Below, one piece after another: positions 1,200 to 5,698 of a stretch of DNA of 5,698 nt. Source of the stretch: Huberarchaeum crystalense [NCBI: Candidatus Huberarchaeum crystalense] (GTDB lineage Archaea > Huberarchaeota > Huberarchaeia > Huberarchaeales); assembly GCA_002790315.1 (NCBI GenBank), contig PFUW01000021.1, forward strand, positions 3,473 to 9,170, given 5' to 3'. The notes under the pieces are model-generated. The model saw only the letters and a list, made by a program, of their open reading frames with translations, did no database searches and was not told where the DNA came from. How positions within the stretch are numbered: position 1 is the stretch's first letter; the number at the start of each line of letters is the position of its first letter. The position numbers were made by a program, and so were the translations under genes.

Positions 1200-2297
1200 T
1201 CAATATCTAAAATGAAGTTCTAAAACATCTTTATCAAATATCTCAAAATCAAGACCTATTTTTTGTCCATTATATCTTGAATCTTTGCGAAATATCCTTG
1301 CAAATCTTATATCTTCTTCTTTAAATCCTCTGCGAATTTGCTCGCACACATCAAAAACATTTGTTCTTCCTTGAAAAATTAGGGGGTTTTCAAAATCAAT
1401 CTCACTGTTTGGCTTTTTTAAAAGCAATCTTTTAAGTTCTAATTTCTCAAATATTTTTTGCTTGAGATTGTCGAGGCCTTGCTTGTTTTTTGTTGAAATA
1501 AATACAATTTCTTGAATTTCTGCTTTAATTTTAGATTTTTCTTTACCAGAAAGCAAGTCATCTTTATTAAAAACAACAATTGATGGCACATATACTTTAT
1601 TTCTAGAAAATACATCAGTAAATTGATCAAAGCTCACTAACCCACAAATCAAAACATCACCATTATACCATCCTTGCGACCGCAAAAATTCTTTTGCGCG
1701 CTCAACAGGGAAAGATTTATCTGTAAGAATATTTACTCCTTTGCTTGCTTTTTTGAAGAAAAATATTGGCGGGGCTTTTTCATTGATTCTTACTCCCACA
1801 TTATAAAGTTCTTTTTGTATTTGTTGGAGCTGGGATATTTTATCAAGTAAGATTAAAACCAAATCAGCATTATGTAAAGCACTCAATACTTTTTTTCCTT
1901 TTCCTTTTCCAGTAGATGCATCTACTATAATACCTGGCAAGTCAATTAGCTGTATTTGCGCGCCATTATATTTCATCATACCCGGGATTGCTAATAATGT
2001 TGTAAAATCATAATCACCTACTTTTGAATTTGCATTTGTCAATTCATTTAAAAGCGAGGATTTTCCAACAGAAGGAAAACCAACAAAACAAACAGTTGCA
2101 TCGCCTGCTTTTTTCAGCATAAATCCTTCACTATCAAGCTTTTTGCTCGCTCTTTTCTCTAATTCGCACCTTAATTTTGCAATTTTGCCTGTTAGCAAAC
2201 CAAGATGTTTTTCAGTGGCTTTATTTTTTTGTGTGTGTGTTATTTCTTTTTTTATTTCTTCAATTTTTTCTTCAATTTTTGGATTAATAGGATGCAT
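1200..2297 (-). CDS. DRG/Rbg family GTP-binding protein with TGS domain
   Basis: This 365-residue protein matches the archaeal DRG (developmentally regulated GTP-binding, Rbg) branch of OBG-type GTPases, which act on ribosomes. Domains in order: an N-terminal charged helix with QKNKATEKHLGLLTGKIAKL (23-42); a G domain with P-loop GFPSVGKS (73-80), DYDFTT (95-100, G2), DLPG (119-122, G3), NKDD (244-247, G4) and STK (268-270, G5); an inserted helical segment (about 150-235); and a C-terminal TGS domain (about 303-365). All nucleotide-binding motifs are intact and the length is normal. The frame extends six codons to a TTG at 2315, but ATG at 2297 is preferred. It begins the conserved homology and lies about 24 nt from the TATA-like box at 2317-2324, as expected for a leaderless mRNA. 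Its 5' end is the first unit of a 4 x 66-bp tandem array. Its 3' end converges on tRNA-Asp. Confidence 0.93.
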   Translation of the reverse strand: MHPINPKIEEKIEEIKKEITHTQKNKATEKHLGLLTGKIAKLRCELEKRASKKLDSEGFMLKKAGDATVCFVGFPSVGKSSLLNELTNANSKVGDYDFTTLLAIPGMMKYNGAQIQLIDLPGIIVDASTGKGKGKKVLSALHNADLVLILLDKISQLQQIQKELYNVGVRINEKAPPIFFFKKASKGVNILTDKSFPVERAKEFLRSQGWYNGDVLICGLVSFDQFTDVFSRNKVYVPSIVVFNKDDLLSGKEKSKIKAEIQEIVFISTKNKQGLDNLKQKIFEKLELKRLLLKKPNSEIDFENPLIFQGRTNVFDVCEQIRRGFKEEDIRFARIFRKDSRYNGQKIGLDFEIFDKDVLELHFRY

Positions 2298-2316
2298 AAA
2301 TTTTTTGGATGGCAAA

Positions 2317-2324
2317 AATATAAA
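2317..2324 (-). promoter_or_regulatory. TATA box (box A) of the DRG gene
   Basis: Minus-strand TTTATATT, close to the archaeal box A consensus TTTAWATA. Its centre is about 24 nt from the DRG ATG at 2297, so transcription would start at or next to the ATG (leaderless). The same box is repeated in the three upstream units. Confidence 0.6.
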
Positions 2325-2382
2325 TTACAAAACATCTTCAATTTTTGGATTAATAGGATGCATAAATTTTTTGGATAGCAAA

Positions 2383-2522
2383 AATATAAATTACAAAACA
2401 TCTTCAATTTTTGGATTAATAGGATGCATAAATTTTTTGGATAGCAAAAATATAAATTACAAAACATCTTCAATTTTTGGATTAATAGGATGCATAAATT
2501 TTTTGGATAGCAAAAATATAAA
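2383..2522 (-). promoter_or_regulatory. Three duplicated TATA boxes upstream of DRG
   Basis: Exact copies of TTTATATT at 2383-2390, 2449-2456 and 2515-2522, each about 24 nt before an ATG (2363, 2429, 2495). If active they would give transcripts starting on short decoy reading frames that stop just before the next TATA box. Activity is inferred from sequence only. Confidence 0.5.
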
Positions 2523-2569
2523 TTACAAAACAAAGCAAAGTATTTATTTTGTTATCTTTTGAATGTAAT

Positions 2570-3469
2570 TTACAAATCAAATTCAATACTTTTCAAATCC
2601 CTTGCAACTTCTACATTTTTAAAAACTGTTTTTGCTTCTTTTTCAAAAAGAGTGATGTCTAAGTGACGGCTGCTAAAATGCGTTAAAATCAAGTGCTTTA
2701 CTTTTGCTTTTTTTGCTGTGGTTGCCGCATCTTTTGCTGTCATATGATAATAATCTTCTGTGCGGTTATCTTCTTTCAAATAAGTAGATTCAAATACAGC
2801 AATATCTGCTTCTTTTGCAAAAGAAATTAAATTTTTGCAAGAAATTGTGTCTCCAGAAAAAACAAGAGAAAACGACCTTTTTTGAAAAGTTACATCTTTT
2901 GCTTTTATTTTTTTTCCTTTGTATTCTATATCAAAGCCTTTTTGCAATTTATTCCATTTTGGACCGCGCGCCAACCCTATTTTTTCTAACTTTTCAACAT
3001 TTACTTTTATAGGAAATTTTAATATTATTTTATATGCAAAACTAGGCACATTATGCTCAACTTTTTCGCAAAGCACTTCAATTTTTTCATTAGCAAAAAC
3101 AAAGCCAGCATCTTCAATGACCTTTGCGTGAAACCATTTGAATTTGTTGCTAAAATAAGCGAGCTGTTCTTTTATAAAATTTTCATATGGTTTTGGTGAA
3201 AATAAAATCAGTGGTCTTTCTCTTTTGTTTAATTCCATGCTTGACAACAAAGGAAGAAGTCCTGACATATGATCAATATGCCAATGAGTAATCAAAATAT
3301 AATTAATGTTTTGGTAATTTTTTTTTAATAAAAGCAATTGTCGTTGGCAGTTTTCGCCGCAGTCAATTAAAATCGAATAATTTTCATATTCAAGTAGATT
3401 GCAAGTATGGGCGCGTGCCTTTGTCGGCATTCCGCTTGCTGTTCCTAAAAAGCTCAGTGTAGATTTCAT
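2570..3469 (-). CDS. rnz: Ribonuclease Z (tRNA 3'-processing endonuclease, MBL fold)
   Basis: This 299-residue protein matches RNase Z, the zinc metallo-beta-lactamase nuclease that cuts precursor tRNAs after the discriminator base so that CCA can be added. This fits the tRNA-Asp here, which lacks an encoded CCA. Seen in order: N-terminal LGTASGMPTKARAHTC (8-23); D36 (motif I); HWHIDH (62-67, motif II); H138 (motif III); the family motif GLARGPKWNKLQKG (164-177); SGDT with D206 (motif IV); the RNase Z-type HMT at 241-243; and THFSSRH with H263 (motif V). All metal ligands are present and the length is typical. The frame extends 21 codons upstream to 3532, but that stretch is a duplicated Phe/Lys/Gln/Asn segment and probably promoter DNA. 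ATG at 3469 begins the homology. It lies upstream of, and in the same direction as, DRG. Confidence 0.93.
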   Translation of the reverse strand: MKSTLSFLGTASGMPTKARAHTCNLLEYENYSILIDCGENCQRQLLLLKKNYQNINYILITHWHIDHMSGLLPLLSSMELNKRERPLILFSPKPYENFIKEQLAYFSNKFKWFHAKVIEDAGFVFANEKIEVLCEKVEHNVPSFAYKIILKFPIKVNVEKLEKIGLARGPKWNKLQKGFDIEYKGKKIKAKDVTFQKRSFSLVFSGDTISCKNLISFAKEADIAVFESTYLKEDNRTEDYYHMTAKDAATTAKKAKVKHLILTHFSSRHLDITLFEKEAKTVFKNVEVARDLKSIEFDL

Positions 3470-3473
3470 AGAT

Positions 3474-3526
3474 TTTTTAAGATTTTGTTTAAAAAAGAAG
3501 TGTTGATTTTTAAGATTTTGTTTAAA
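3474..3526 (-). repeat. 20-bp direct repeat (33-bp period) in the RNase Z promoter region
   Basis: The plus-strand sequence tttttaagattttgtttaaa occurs exactly at 3474-3493 and again at 3507-3526. On the minus strand each copy gives a TTTAAACA box followed by AAATCTTAAAAA. The copy nearer the gene is placed to serve RNase Z; the other is a duplicate upstream. Confidence 0.85.
3486..3495 (-). promoter_or_regulatory. Probable TATA box of RNase Z
   Basis: The minus strand reads TTTTTAAACA. The centre is about 21-22 nt from the ATG at 3469, compatible with a leaderless or nearly leaderless transcript. The element is duplicated 33 bp upstream. Box identity is uncertain in this AT-rich context. 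Confidence 0.4.
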
Positions 3527-3532
3527 GAACAA

Positions 3533-3818: not shown

Positions 3819-3861
3819 AAAATTATAGGAGAGCCACATTCATTTAATGCTTTTCTATAAT

Positions 3862-3866
3862 GGAGG
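3862..3866 (+). promoter_or_regulatory. Strong Shine-Dalgarno site (GGAGG)
   Basis: GGAGG lies 5 nt before the ATG at 3872. It is the clearest ribosome binding site in the window; DRG, RNase Z and the dehydrogenase show none. It is the main evidence that the very short frame downstream is translated. Confidence 0.7.
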
Positions 3867-3871
3867 AAAAA

Positions 3872-3931
3872 ATGGCAAAAAAAAAGACAACTAAAAAAAT
3901 AGTAAAAAAAGATACGAAGAAAAAAAAATAG
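3872..3931 (+). CDS. 19-residue lysine-rich microprotein
   Basis: The frame encodes MAKKKTTKKIVKKDTKKKK followed by TAG. Eleven of 19 residues are Lys; there is one Asp and no hydrophobic core, so it should be disordered and highly basic. Its start is supported by GGAGG 5 nt upstream and a plausible TATA box about 57 nt upstream. Short Lys-rich proteins opening with MAKKK are familiar from small archaeal genomes and resemble histone or ribosomal-protein tails; nucleic-acid binding is a guess from charge alone. A-rich DNA favours Lys codons by chance, so the Shine-Dalgarno is what separates this from noise. A 12-bp interrupted hairpin follows 9 nt after the stop. No family is recognised. Confidence 0.55.
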   Translation: MAKKKTTKKIVKKDTKKKK

Positions 3932-3940
3932 ATATAAAAA

Positions 3941-3974
3941 GAGGGGGCATAACTTTGTGTTATGCCTGCACCTC
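3941..3974 (+). other. RNA hairpin downstream of the microprotein gene
   Basis: A perfect 8-bp stem GGCATAAC/GTTATGCC (3946-3953 with 3959-3966) closes a 5-nt loop TTTGT. Beyond an internal loop (3945 versus 3967-3970), GAGG (3941-3944) can pair with CCTC (3971-3974). No T-run follows directly, so it is not a classic intrinsic terminator; it may protect a 3' end or be part of a small RNA. The 3' arm runs into CACCTCCTT (3969-3977), which resembles the 16S rRNA 3' end. Confidence 0.6.
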
Positions 3975-3991
3975 CTTAAATTTAAATAATA

Positions 3992-4094
3992 TTTAGTTAT
4001 ATTTAAATTAGAATTAAACGAGTTGATTTTTTAAATTAGAATTAATGCAGTTTAGTTATATTTAAATTAGAATTAAACGAGTTGATTTTTTAAA
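3992..4094. repeat. 44-bp direct repeat (59-bp period)
   Basis: Two identical 44-bp copies (3992-4035 and 4051-4094), beginning tttagttatatttaaatt and ending gttgattttttaaa, are separated by 15 bp. The core aaattagaattaa occurs a third time across the junction (4033-4045). Each copy includes a TATA-like ttatatttaaa. The repeat lies 40-140 bp upstream of the dehydrogenase start and contains no long reading frame. Confidence 0.9.
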
Positions 4095-4110
4095 GTTATA
4101 GCAAAAATAA

Positions 4111-4118
4111 TTTATGAT
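4111..4118 (+). promoter_or_regulatory. Possible TATA box of the FAD-dehydrogenase gene
   Basis: TTTATGAT preceded by A-rich GCAAAAATAA, with its centre about 20 nt before the ATG at 4135, a spacing close to that at DRG and RNase Z. Weak match to consensus. Confidence 0.25.
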
Positions 4119-4134
4119 ATTAAATAAATAATAT

Positions 4135-4233
4135 ATGAATAAAACTCTGAAAAAGATAAGTCATACTAAATTAAATGAATTTGATATTGTGATAATTAGA
4201 GGGGGGCCGGCAGGGATTTTTGCTTGCAAATGA
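4135..4233 (+). pseudogene. N-terminal FAD-binding fragment of the dehydrogenase, separated by a frameshift
   Basis: From ATG 4135 this frame encodes 32 residues ending at TGA 4231. It contains EFDIVIIRGGPAGIFA, clearly the first beta strand and dinucleotide-binding turn that should begin the dehydrogenase encoded just downstream. The downstream frame (from 4220) is one base ahead. Removing one T from the run at 4217-4221, or from the TT at 4224-4225, joins the two into a single 469-residue protein reading ...GGPAGILLANEL or ...GGPAGIFAANEL. The first Gly of the expected GxGxxG is Arg here (AGA, 4198-4200). Possible causes are true gene decay, a sequencing or assembly error, or a programmed +1 shift. 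Confidence 0.75.
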
Positions 4234-5545
4234 ATTGTGCGCAACAAAATCCAAAAAATTAAAAATACTTATTATAGATAAAGGAAAAGAGCCATTAAAA
4301 AGAGATCCTAAAAAAGAACCAACAGATCTTGTTTTTGGTGTTGGGGGTGCAGGTATGTTTTCAGATGGAAAACTAAACCTAAATGTTGATATTGGCGGTG
4401 ACCTTAAAGAAATAAACATATCTCGAGAAGAATTATTACAACTTATTGAAAAAGTTGATGAACTTTTTGTGGAGCTTGGAGTGTCGCGCTCTTTTTTAAA
4501 TGCAAACAAAATTAAGATCAATGAATTAAAAAAGCAAGCAAGCATAAATGGTATTGGGTTTATTTATGGAAAACAAAAGCATATTGGCACTGATGTTTTA
4601 AAAAAAATAATTAATAAATTTTACAATAAACTAAAAACAAAAGATGTTAAGTTTATGCTTGAAACAGGTGTTGAAAATATAAAAATGTTTAAAGAAAGGT
4701 ATATAATAGAAACAAATAAAGGTATAATTATGGCCAAGTATGTTTTGTGCGCGCCAGGAAGATGCGGCGCACATTGGCTCAAAAATCAAGCAGATTTATT
4801 GAATATAAAAACAAGTCCTGGGTATATAGATGTTGGTGTTCGTGTTGAATTTCCTGAATTGGTTTATAAAGACATTGAAGAAGTTATGTATGATGCAAAA
4901 TTTAGATGTTATACAAAGACATACGATGATTTGGTGCGCACTTTTTGTACAAATCCGCGCGGTTTGGTTGTTAGAGAGCAGTATGATGGCTTTTCTATTA
5001 TCAATGGACACGCAGAGTCAAAAGGTAAAACTTCAAATACAAATCTTGCTCTTTTAGTGCGCGTAGAATTAATGGAACCATCAAAAACCAGCGTAGATTA
5101 TGGTAAATATATTGTTCATCTTGCAAATGTTGTTGGAAATGGGAAGCCATTGATACAAAGATATAAAGATCTAACCGCAGGCAGAAGAAGCACTTGGGAC
5201 AGAATAAACAGATCATTTGTAGAGCCAAGTTGCAAGGATGTTTATCCTGGCGATATTTCATATGCATTACCCCACAGAATAGTTCAAAACATAATTGAAG
5301 CAATTAAAAAATTAGATAAGATAATGCCAGGCATTGCATCTGACACAACGCTTTTGTATGCTCCTGAGGTTAAGTTTTATGAAATAAAATATCTAATTAA
5401 TAATTGGTTTGAAACAACATCTTCTGGTTTGTTTGTTGCAGGTGATGCAAGCGGTTTTTCTCGCGGAATTGTTTATTCTGCTTTAACAGGTATTATTGCT
5501 GCACAAGGTATAAAAGAAAAAATATTAAAAACCCCAAACAATTAG
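4220..5545 (+). CDS. FAD-dependent dehydrogenase, COG2509-like (main part, N-terminus frameshifted)
   Basis: The frame is open for 441 codons and matches the uncharacterised FAD-dependent dehydrogenase family COG2509. Seen in order: LKILIIDKG (residues 14-22, second Rossmann strand with the ribose-binding Asp); the family signature FGVGGAGMFSDGKLN (39-53); KHIGTDVLKKII; YVLCAPGRCGAHWL; a VGVRVEFPEL segment; FCTNPRGLVV; GRRSTWDRINRSFVEPS; and the C-terminal FAD-contacting GLFVAGDASG (403-412) with GIVYSALTGIIAAQGI. Substrate and partner are unknown for this family. The open frame has only TTG (4220) at its 5' end and lacks the GxGxxG loop, which is found in another frame at 4135-4233; the true gene very likely starts at ATG 4135 (469 residues, normal length). 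Apart from the 5' lesion the sequence looks well conserved, arguing for an error or recent mutation rather than old decay. Confidence 0.85.
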   Translation: MLANELCATKSKKLKILIIDKGKEPLKRDPKKEPTDLVFGVGGAGMFSDGKLNLNVDIGGDLKEINISREELLQLIEKVDELFVELGVSRSFLNANKIKINELKKQASINGIGFIYGKQKHIGTDVLKKIINKFYNKLKTKDVKFMLETGVENIKMFKERYIIETNKGIIMAKYVLCAPGRCGAHWLKNQADLLNIKTSPGYIDVGVRVEFPELVYKDIEEVMYDAKFRCYTKTYDDLVRTFCTNPRGLVVREQYDGFSIINGHAESKGKTSNTNLALLVRVELMEPSKTSVDYGKYIVHLANVVGNGKPLIQRYKDLTAGRRSTWDRINRSFVEPSCKDVYPGDISYALPHRIVQNIIEAIKKLDKIMPGIASDTTLLYAPEVKFYEIKYLINNWFETTSSGLFVAGDASGFSRGIVYSALTGIIAAQGIKEKILKTPNN

Positions 5546-5559
5546 GTAATTAGTTGTAT

Positions 5560-5698
5560 ATGGTTGAGCGCAAAATATTTAATAAACACAATATAATATT
5601 TAGAAAAAATATAAATTTTGATTTTGTAATTGCTGTTTATTTAATGATTTTGAATTTTGATTTTGTAATTGCTGTTTATTTAATGATTTTGAATTTTG
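5560..5698 (+). CDS. Possible start of a small gene containing 13-residue repeats (partial, runs off window)
   Basis: From ATG 5560, 14 nt after the dehydrogenase stop, a frame stays open for 46 codons to the window end. It begins MVERKIFNKHNIIFRKNI and then repeats NFDFVIAVYLMIL, a hydrophobic 13-residue unit that could form membrane segments. No family is recognised. Against it: there is no Shine-Dalgarno, and the 39-bp repeat period is a multiple of three, so frames remain open automatically. The minus strand is also open here, from the window edge to TAA at 5600-5602, reading a hydrophilic repeat QNSKSLNKQQLQN, and could instead be the end of a gene coming from the right. The sequence shown cannot settle which strand, if either, is coding. 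Confidence 0.3.
   Translation, partial: MVERKIFNKHNIIFRKNINFDFVIAVYLMILNFDFVIAVYLMILNF
5614..5698. repeat. 39-bp tandem repeat continuing past the window end
   Basis: The unit begins aattttgattttgtaattgc. Copies start at 5614, 5653 and 5692; the first two are identical and the third is cut off by the window end after 7 bases. The total copy number is unknown. Confidence 0.93.

What the first reader, a model, noticed from the sequence alone, without database searches (positions are those of the whole stretch)
2269..2532. DRG promoter plus start codon amplified into a 4 x 66-bp array with decoy leaderless mini-genes
Each unit holds a TATA box about 24 nt before an ATG and the first codons of the DRG GTPase. 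Only the unit next to the gene continues into the protein; the other three give MHPINPKIEDVL then stop, with the stop adjacent to the next TATA box. This could raise transcription by adding promoters, titrate transcription factors or ribosomes, or produce a repeated 12-residue peptide. Copy number could vary and tune expression. The repeat is visible directly; the regulatory role is inference.
Basis: partly seen in the sequence, partly recalled or inferred. Interest (0 to 1): 0.75.

Follow-up and report, generated by a model that had tools for sequence, protein, structure and literature searches.

The report
Copied start region before DRG gene
In a tiny uncultivated archaeon, the promoter-like stretch and first codons of a housekeeping GTPase gene are repeated head to tail, four times in this copy and three in another; it looks like one of many similar stutters scattered between this organism's genes rather than a purpose-built expression booster.

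Summary
In detail: 4 x 66 bp at 2269-2532 on the minus strand, one variable site, each unit holding a TATA-like box, an A-run and ATG; the three upstream copies read MHPINPKIEDVL-stop. The window is Candidatus Huberarchaeum crystalense or a near-identical strain: contig L001 of that MAG encodes an identical DRG protein. L001 has three units in a different variant order, with one other difference in 5425 compared bases, so the array varies faster than its surroundings. The rest of that genome changes the reading: 64 near-perfect arrays in 375 kb, against 3 in 351 kb of three AT-rich control genomes and 4 in 668 kb of 39 others. 54 lie mainly outside called genes; they are as dense where no promoter is expected as elsewhere and span stop codons (11) at least as often as start codons (8). 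Three other genes also have a copied start codon with a dead-end ORF. Best explanation: a start-spanning VNTR made by a genome-wide tandem-duplication tendency; any effect on DRG expression is unproven. Closest known: promoter tandem repeats of bacteria. The genome's array density is the more interesting result.

The parts
2269..2532 (-). Tandem array, 4 x 66 bp, spanning the DRG start region
2269..2334 (-). Gene-proximal unit (C variant); its ATG at 2297 starts DRG
2335..2400 (-). Unit 2 (T variant); ATG at 2363, 12-codon ORF MHPINPKIEDVL-stop
2401..2466 (-). Unit 3 (T variant); ATG at 2429, same 12-codon ORF
2467..2532 (-). Unit 4 (T variant), outermost; ATG at 2495, same 12-codon ORF
1200..2297 (-). 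DRG-type GTPase, 365 aa, downstream of the array
   Evidence: PF01926 1.3e-25, PF16897 3.6e-20; 100% identical protein in L001
2570..3469 (-). Ribonuclease Z, the upstream neighbour on the same strand; 37 nt lie between its stop codon and the array
   Evidence: NF000801 above its cut-off (271.6 against 252 bits), TIGR02651 just below (278.5 against 292.95)

Best explanation
The array is a variable-number tandem repeat that happens to span the DRG start region. In this lineage short stretches of non-coding DNA (periods of 20-84 bp outside genes) are often tandemly duplicated and then gain or lose units by slippage or unequal exchange; one such event took the last 37 nt before the DRG start codon (TATA-like box, A-run) plus the first 29 nt of the gene. 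Only the gene-proximal unit starts the real protein; the others are by-products that may fire as extra promoters and be translated for 12 codons, with at most a modest effect on DRG output. Shown: anatomy, near-identity of units, a different unit number and order in a second assembly, the genome-wide excess of such arrays and their lack of promoter bias. Inferred: slippage or exchange as the mechanism, promoter activity, weak or no selection.
For: Second assembly with 3 units in order T,C,C (from the RNase Z side) against T,T,T,C here, and 1 difference in 5425 other bases. 64 arrays (at least 90% matches, at least 1.9 copies, period 20-200 allowed) in 375,195 readable bases, 17.1 per 100 kb; 0 in each of three order-1 Markov copies; 3 in 351,053 bases of three AT-rich genomes; 4 in 667,520 bases of 39 more genomes. 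54 of 64 lie mainly outside called ORFs although ORFs cover 83% of bases. No bias to promoter-bearing gaps, and 11 of these 54 span a stop against 8 a start. Period is a multiple of 3 in 10 of 10 coding arrays but 21 of 54 others: selection acts on frame inside genes, not elsewhere. 4 of the 8 start-spanning arrays, DRG included, keep an upstream ATG with a dead-end ORF of 12-20 codons.
Against: Each unit carries a complete start signal: a TATA-like box and the A-run and T-at-minus-1 context typical of this genome's leading genes, so extra copies could act. Only two assemblies could be compared. Genes were called by a crude ORF rule, which blurs start, stop and intergenic classes, and 9 of 54 non-coding arrays could not be placed. 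With four units this array has more copies than most others in the census. Absence of a promoter bias genome-wide does not exclude selection at this one locus. The molecular cause of the high array density was not found.
Confidence: 0.74

Rival explanations
1. The array is a selected promoter repeat that tunes DRG expression: extra promoters raise transcription, or copy-number change makes expression phase-variable, as proposed for promoter tandem repeats in Mycobacterium tuberculosis.
For: Units hold a TATA-like box that is the best-scoring site of the 37-nt leader; unit number differs between two near-identical assemblies; precedent in PMC12817950 (abstract and passages seen), including a 57-bp promoter duplication and repeats next to leaderless promoters.
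Against: No promoter bias of arrays in this genome. Transcripts from upstream units would carry up to three short ORFs ahead of DRG, which should lower rather than raise translation (inference). DRG is a housekeeping GTPase, not a usual contingency gene (recalled).
Confidence: 0.15
2. The copy number, or the array itself, is an assembly artefact.
For: Reads mapped for this site were 150 bp (PMC6792436, passage seen; whether the window comes from that dataset is not told), so a 264-bp array is not spanned by one read. Contig ends lie in tandem repeats (looser rule: period at least 12, at least 80% matches) more than expected: 13 of 78 ends, against 4.7% of bases.
Against: The same unit with the same boundaries occurs in two assemblies. 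The C-C neighbourhood in L001 and T-T in the window are 66 bp apart, within one such read. Periods vary from 20 to 138 and respect codon frame inside genes in 10 of 10 cases, which an artefact would not.
Confidence: 0.06
3. The repeated 12-codon ORFs make a functional peptide, or sequester ribosomes.
For: Three intact identical copies in the window, two in L001.
Against: The copies are too alike to show any constraint; the peptide is just the DRG N-terminus plus read-in from the repeat junction; three unrelated genes have similar dead-end ORFs.
Confidence: 0.03

Closest known systems
Promoter tandem repeats (PTRs) of Mycobacterium tuberculosis (dop, lpdA, cysG), PMC12817950
   Same: Head-to-tail repeat of tens of bp (57 bp for dop) at a start region, those of lpdA and cysG next to leaderless promoters, with copy number differing between near-identical genomes (abstract and passages seen)
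   Different: A bacterium; there expression effects are argued; here the unit contains the start codon, no expression data exist, and arrays elsewhere in the genome show no promoter bias
Intergenic VNTR loci of prokaryotes in general (recalled)
   Same: Near-identical short units, copy number varying faster than point changes
   Different: Density in this genome is far above that in the stretches of 42 control genomes sampled here
Archaeal leaderless genes with a TATA box about 25 nt before ATG (recalled)
   Same: DRG leader: TTTATATT at -27 to -20, no Shine-Dalgarno-like stretch seen in the letters
   Different: The TATA signal is weak genome-wide here (hits about twofold above baseline at -27 to -24); no 5' ends mapped

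Membership tests
Promoter-spanning VNTR | Head-to-tail near-identical units | tested here: met
   4 units, one variable site
Promoter-spanning VNTR | Copy number differs between close relatives | tested here: met
   4 against 3 units with 1 difference in 5425 other bases; only two assemblies, exact numbers limited by short reads
Promoter-spanning VNTR | Unit contains a working promoter | tested here: inconclusive
   TATA-like box by score only; no transcript data
Promoter-spanning VNTR | Copy number changes expression of the gene | not testable with these tools
   needs expression data
Regulatory promoter amplification as a genome strategy | Arrays enriched at promoters over other intergenic DNA | tested here: not met
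   0.99, 0.92 and 1.06 arrays per kb in same-strand, divergent and convergent gaps; 9 of 54 unplaced
DRG GTPase | MMR_HSR1 plus MMR_HSR1_Xtn domains | tested here: met
   both above curated cut-off
Leaderless archaeal gene | Transcript begins at or next to the start codon | not testable with these tools
   TATA position is compatible; no 5' ends available

The most novel reading that the evidence does not exclude
Huberarchaeum keeps a genome-wide set of hypervariable tandem arrays, many at gene ends and starts, that act together as contingency loci in an archaeal symbiont, with start-codon-bearing arrays such as DRG's adding decoy starts that tune translation by unit number; or it has a lineage-specific replication or repair change that stamps tandem duplications across its non-coding DNA.
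Probability: 0.2. Interest if true: 0.7.

Novelty: new member of a known kind. Interest (0 to 1): 0.4.

Why it matters
By itself the DRG array is an ordinary, if neat, tandem repeat. Taken with the rest of the genome it points to an archaeal lineage whose non-coding DNA is stamped with tandem duplications at some 15 times (AT-rich controls) to 25 times (all controls) the density of the stretches compared here. That trait could be traced to a replication or repair difference, would help explain why its assemblies break where they do, and offers strain markers for an uncultivated symbiont.

Tried and rejected
No whole genome is held for the window, so the census used the genome behind L001. Its phylum holds no second genome in the collection (1 of 1), so only two assemblies could be compared. 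An exact pattern of part of the unit in viral contigs and a near-identity search of 1200-3470 in plasmids found nothing. Loss of FEN1, whose absence in yeast gives tandem duplications (recalled), was tested and rejected: G001 has a FEN1 match over nearly the full profile (327.8 bits, below the curated cut-off of 351.95, while the 3 controls pass it); the one TGA that one search counts inside the match is the end of an otherwise open 342-aa ORF. RadA is present over its cut-off in all 4 genomes searched. A changed anti-Shine-Dalgarno was rejected: the 16S tail reads GATCACCTCCTTA. Homology at unit edges was examined on 32 perfect arrays of 64; the residues are longer than chance, but partial copies make them hard to read, and nothing is built on them; for DRG the letters show no homology at the outer edges. 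Of 60 genomes of the class of G003, 54 match DRG or a related GTPase; the flanks of 31 loci (from: 16 full-length matches, 15 partial) were scanned, and none carries an array of period 20 or more with at least 90% matches.

A first placing of arrays (25 same-strand, 12 divergent, 7 convergent, 10 unplaced) mis-set a few arrays that straddle a gene end; the recount by gene midpoints (26, 11, 8, 9) is the one used. The conclusion did not change.

The plus-strand ORF 2143-2562 and the minus-strand ORF 2252-2533 are rejected as genes: a period divisible by 3 keeps any open frame open through the array. The weak profile hits of the plus-strand ORF stay below the curated cut-offs; the minus-strand one was not searched.

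Full report
What is there. The minus strand of 2269-2532 holds four head-to-tail copies of a 66-bp unit. Three are identical; the gene-proximal one differs by one base. Each unit runs from 37 nt before an ATG through 29 nt from its first base on. It holds TTTATATT at -27 to -20, the best-scoring TATA-like site of the leader, an A-run at -9 to -4 and T at -1. The proximal ATG (2297) opens a 365-aa DRG-type GTPase with both defining domains. The three upstream copies read MHPINPKIEDVL and stop, the stop lying against the next TATA-like box.

Where it comes from. A scan of one genome per species finds a 5665-base contig of Candidatus Huberarchaeum crystalense with a 100% identical DRG protein over all 365 residues. 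Its DNA matches the window over nearly its whole length: outside the array 1 difference in 5425 compared bases. This organism is described from Crystal Geyser as a small-genome archaeon, about 0.5 Mbp, with 11 genomes recovered; 150-bp reads were mapped (PMC6792436, passages seen).

The array varies. L001 has three units where the window has four, and the variant base reads T,C,C from the RNase Z side, against T,T,T,C in the window. Short-read assemblies cannot count units safely in an array longer than a read, but the C-C and T-T neighbourhoods are 66 bp apart and fall within one 150-bp read. So the difference in unit order is likely real even if the exact numbers are not.

It is not special in its genome. 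Tandem Repeats Finder on the readable part of the L001 genome (375,195 bases in 39 contigs) gives 64 merged arrays with periods of 20 to 138 bp, at least 90% matches and at least 1.9 copies: 17.1 per 100 kb. Three order-1 Markov copies give none. Three AT-rich genomes of the class of G003 (an Aenigmatarchaeota MAG by the title of L003) give 1, 2 and 0 in 351,053 bases. One stretch each from 39 further genomes of that class gives 4 in 667,520 bases; among the 12 with GC below 0.36 it is 3 in 178,967, with two single stretches reaching 7 and 10 per 100 kb from one and two arrays. Of the 64 arrays 46 are intergenic, 8 straddle a gene end and 10 are coding. The 10 coding ones all have periods divisible by 3, the other 54 in 21 cases, near the third expected by chance. 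This speaks against artefact and for purging of frame-breaking events inside genes.

No promoter bias. Of the 54 arrays outside or straddling genes, 26 lie in same-strand gaps (26,307 bp), 11 in divergent gaps (11,953 bp) and 8 in convergent gaps (7,563 bp); 9 lack a called gene on one side and could not be placed (gap lengths). That is about one per kb in each class. 8 of the 54 span a called start and 11 a called stop. If arrays were kept as promoters, convergent gaps and stops should be poor in them. The gene calls are crude, so small biases would be missed.

Copied starts recur. Of the 8 start-spanning arrays 4 keep an ATG in an upstream copy, each opening a short dead-end ORF: DRG (12 codons), a 577-aa ORF on contig C42 (14), a 178-aa ORF at the edge of L020 (20) and a 490-aa ORF on contig C13 (17). 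For DRG, C42 and L020 the leader is copied too; for C13 only the start codon and first codons are. In the other 4 the upstream copy has no ATG at that place (one has an ATG two bases on).

Mechanism. Most likely: tandem duplication of short non-coding stretches at an unusual rate, then gain and loss of units, with purging where genes are harmed. FEN1 and RadA are both present, so the simplest repair-loss ideas are not supported; the cause of the high density is open. Whether extra DRG units fire as promoters is unknown. If they do, their transcripts carry one to three short ORFs before DRG, so a large rise in protein is not expected (inference).

Known and new. Promoter tandem repeats with variable copy number are known; the closest described case found is in Mycobacterium tuberculosis, with 57-bp repeats of the dop promoter and others next to leaderless promoters (PMC12817950, abstract and passages seen). 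So the DRG array is a new member of a known kind. Searches of the held papers for Huberarchaeum with 'tandem' (6 papers, listing only; by title they concern other topics) and for tandem repeats with DPANN and intergenic (none) found no report of the array density. A later paper on this symbiosis (recalled) did not appear in the listings, so a prior report is not excluded.

Observation confirmed; copy-number variation, which it guessed, is supported; the regulatory purpose is not.

Noticed in passing
L001 genome (G001), 193 leading genes; also in each unit of window 2269-2532: Leading genes share a start context: A at -9 to -7 and -5 (0.75-0.84) and T at -1 (0.83). The A-run is not seen in three AT-rich control genomes or 12 pooled ones (T at -1 reaches 0.71 in the pool), it is weaker in 54 ORFs close behind another, and the 16S tail keeps a normal anti-Shine-Dalgarno. 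Its role is unknown.
   Followed up: partly
window 5614-5698 and L001 1-76: Both assemblies end in the same 39-bp tandem array; 13 of 78 contig ends of the L001 genome lie in tandem repeats (looser rule) against 4.7% of bases.
   Followed up: yes
window 3991-4125 and 3474-3532: Further repeats in the same window: a 59-bp unit (2.3 copies, 83% matches) and a pair of 26-bp repeats 33 bp apart just upstream of the RNase Z start.
   Followed up: no
window 3855-3990 (+): A 19-residue lysine-rich ORF (3872-3931) with GGAGG before it, followed by a stable hairpin and CACCTCCTT, which matches the 16S tail; the stretch folds far better than shuffles (z -4.75). The single difference from L001 outside the array falls in this ORF, at 3911.
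   Followed up: partly
window 4135-4240 (+): The FAD-dependent protein reads in two overlapping frames near its start: a nucleotide-binding-like start from 4135 in one frame ends in a stop, the rest (ORF from 4220) lies in another; L001 has the same letters here. Frame break or assembly error.
   Followed up: partly
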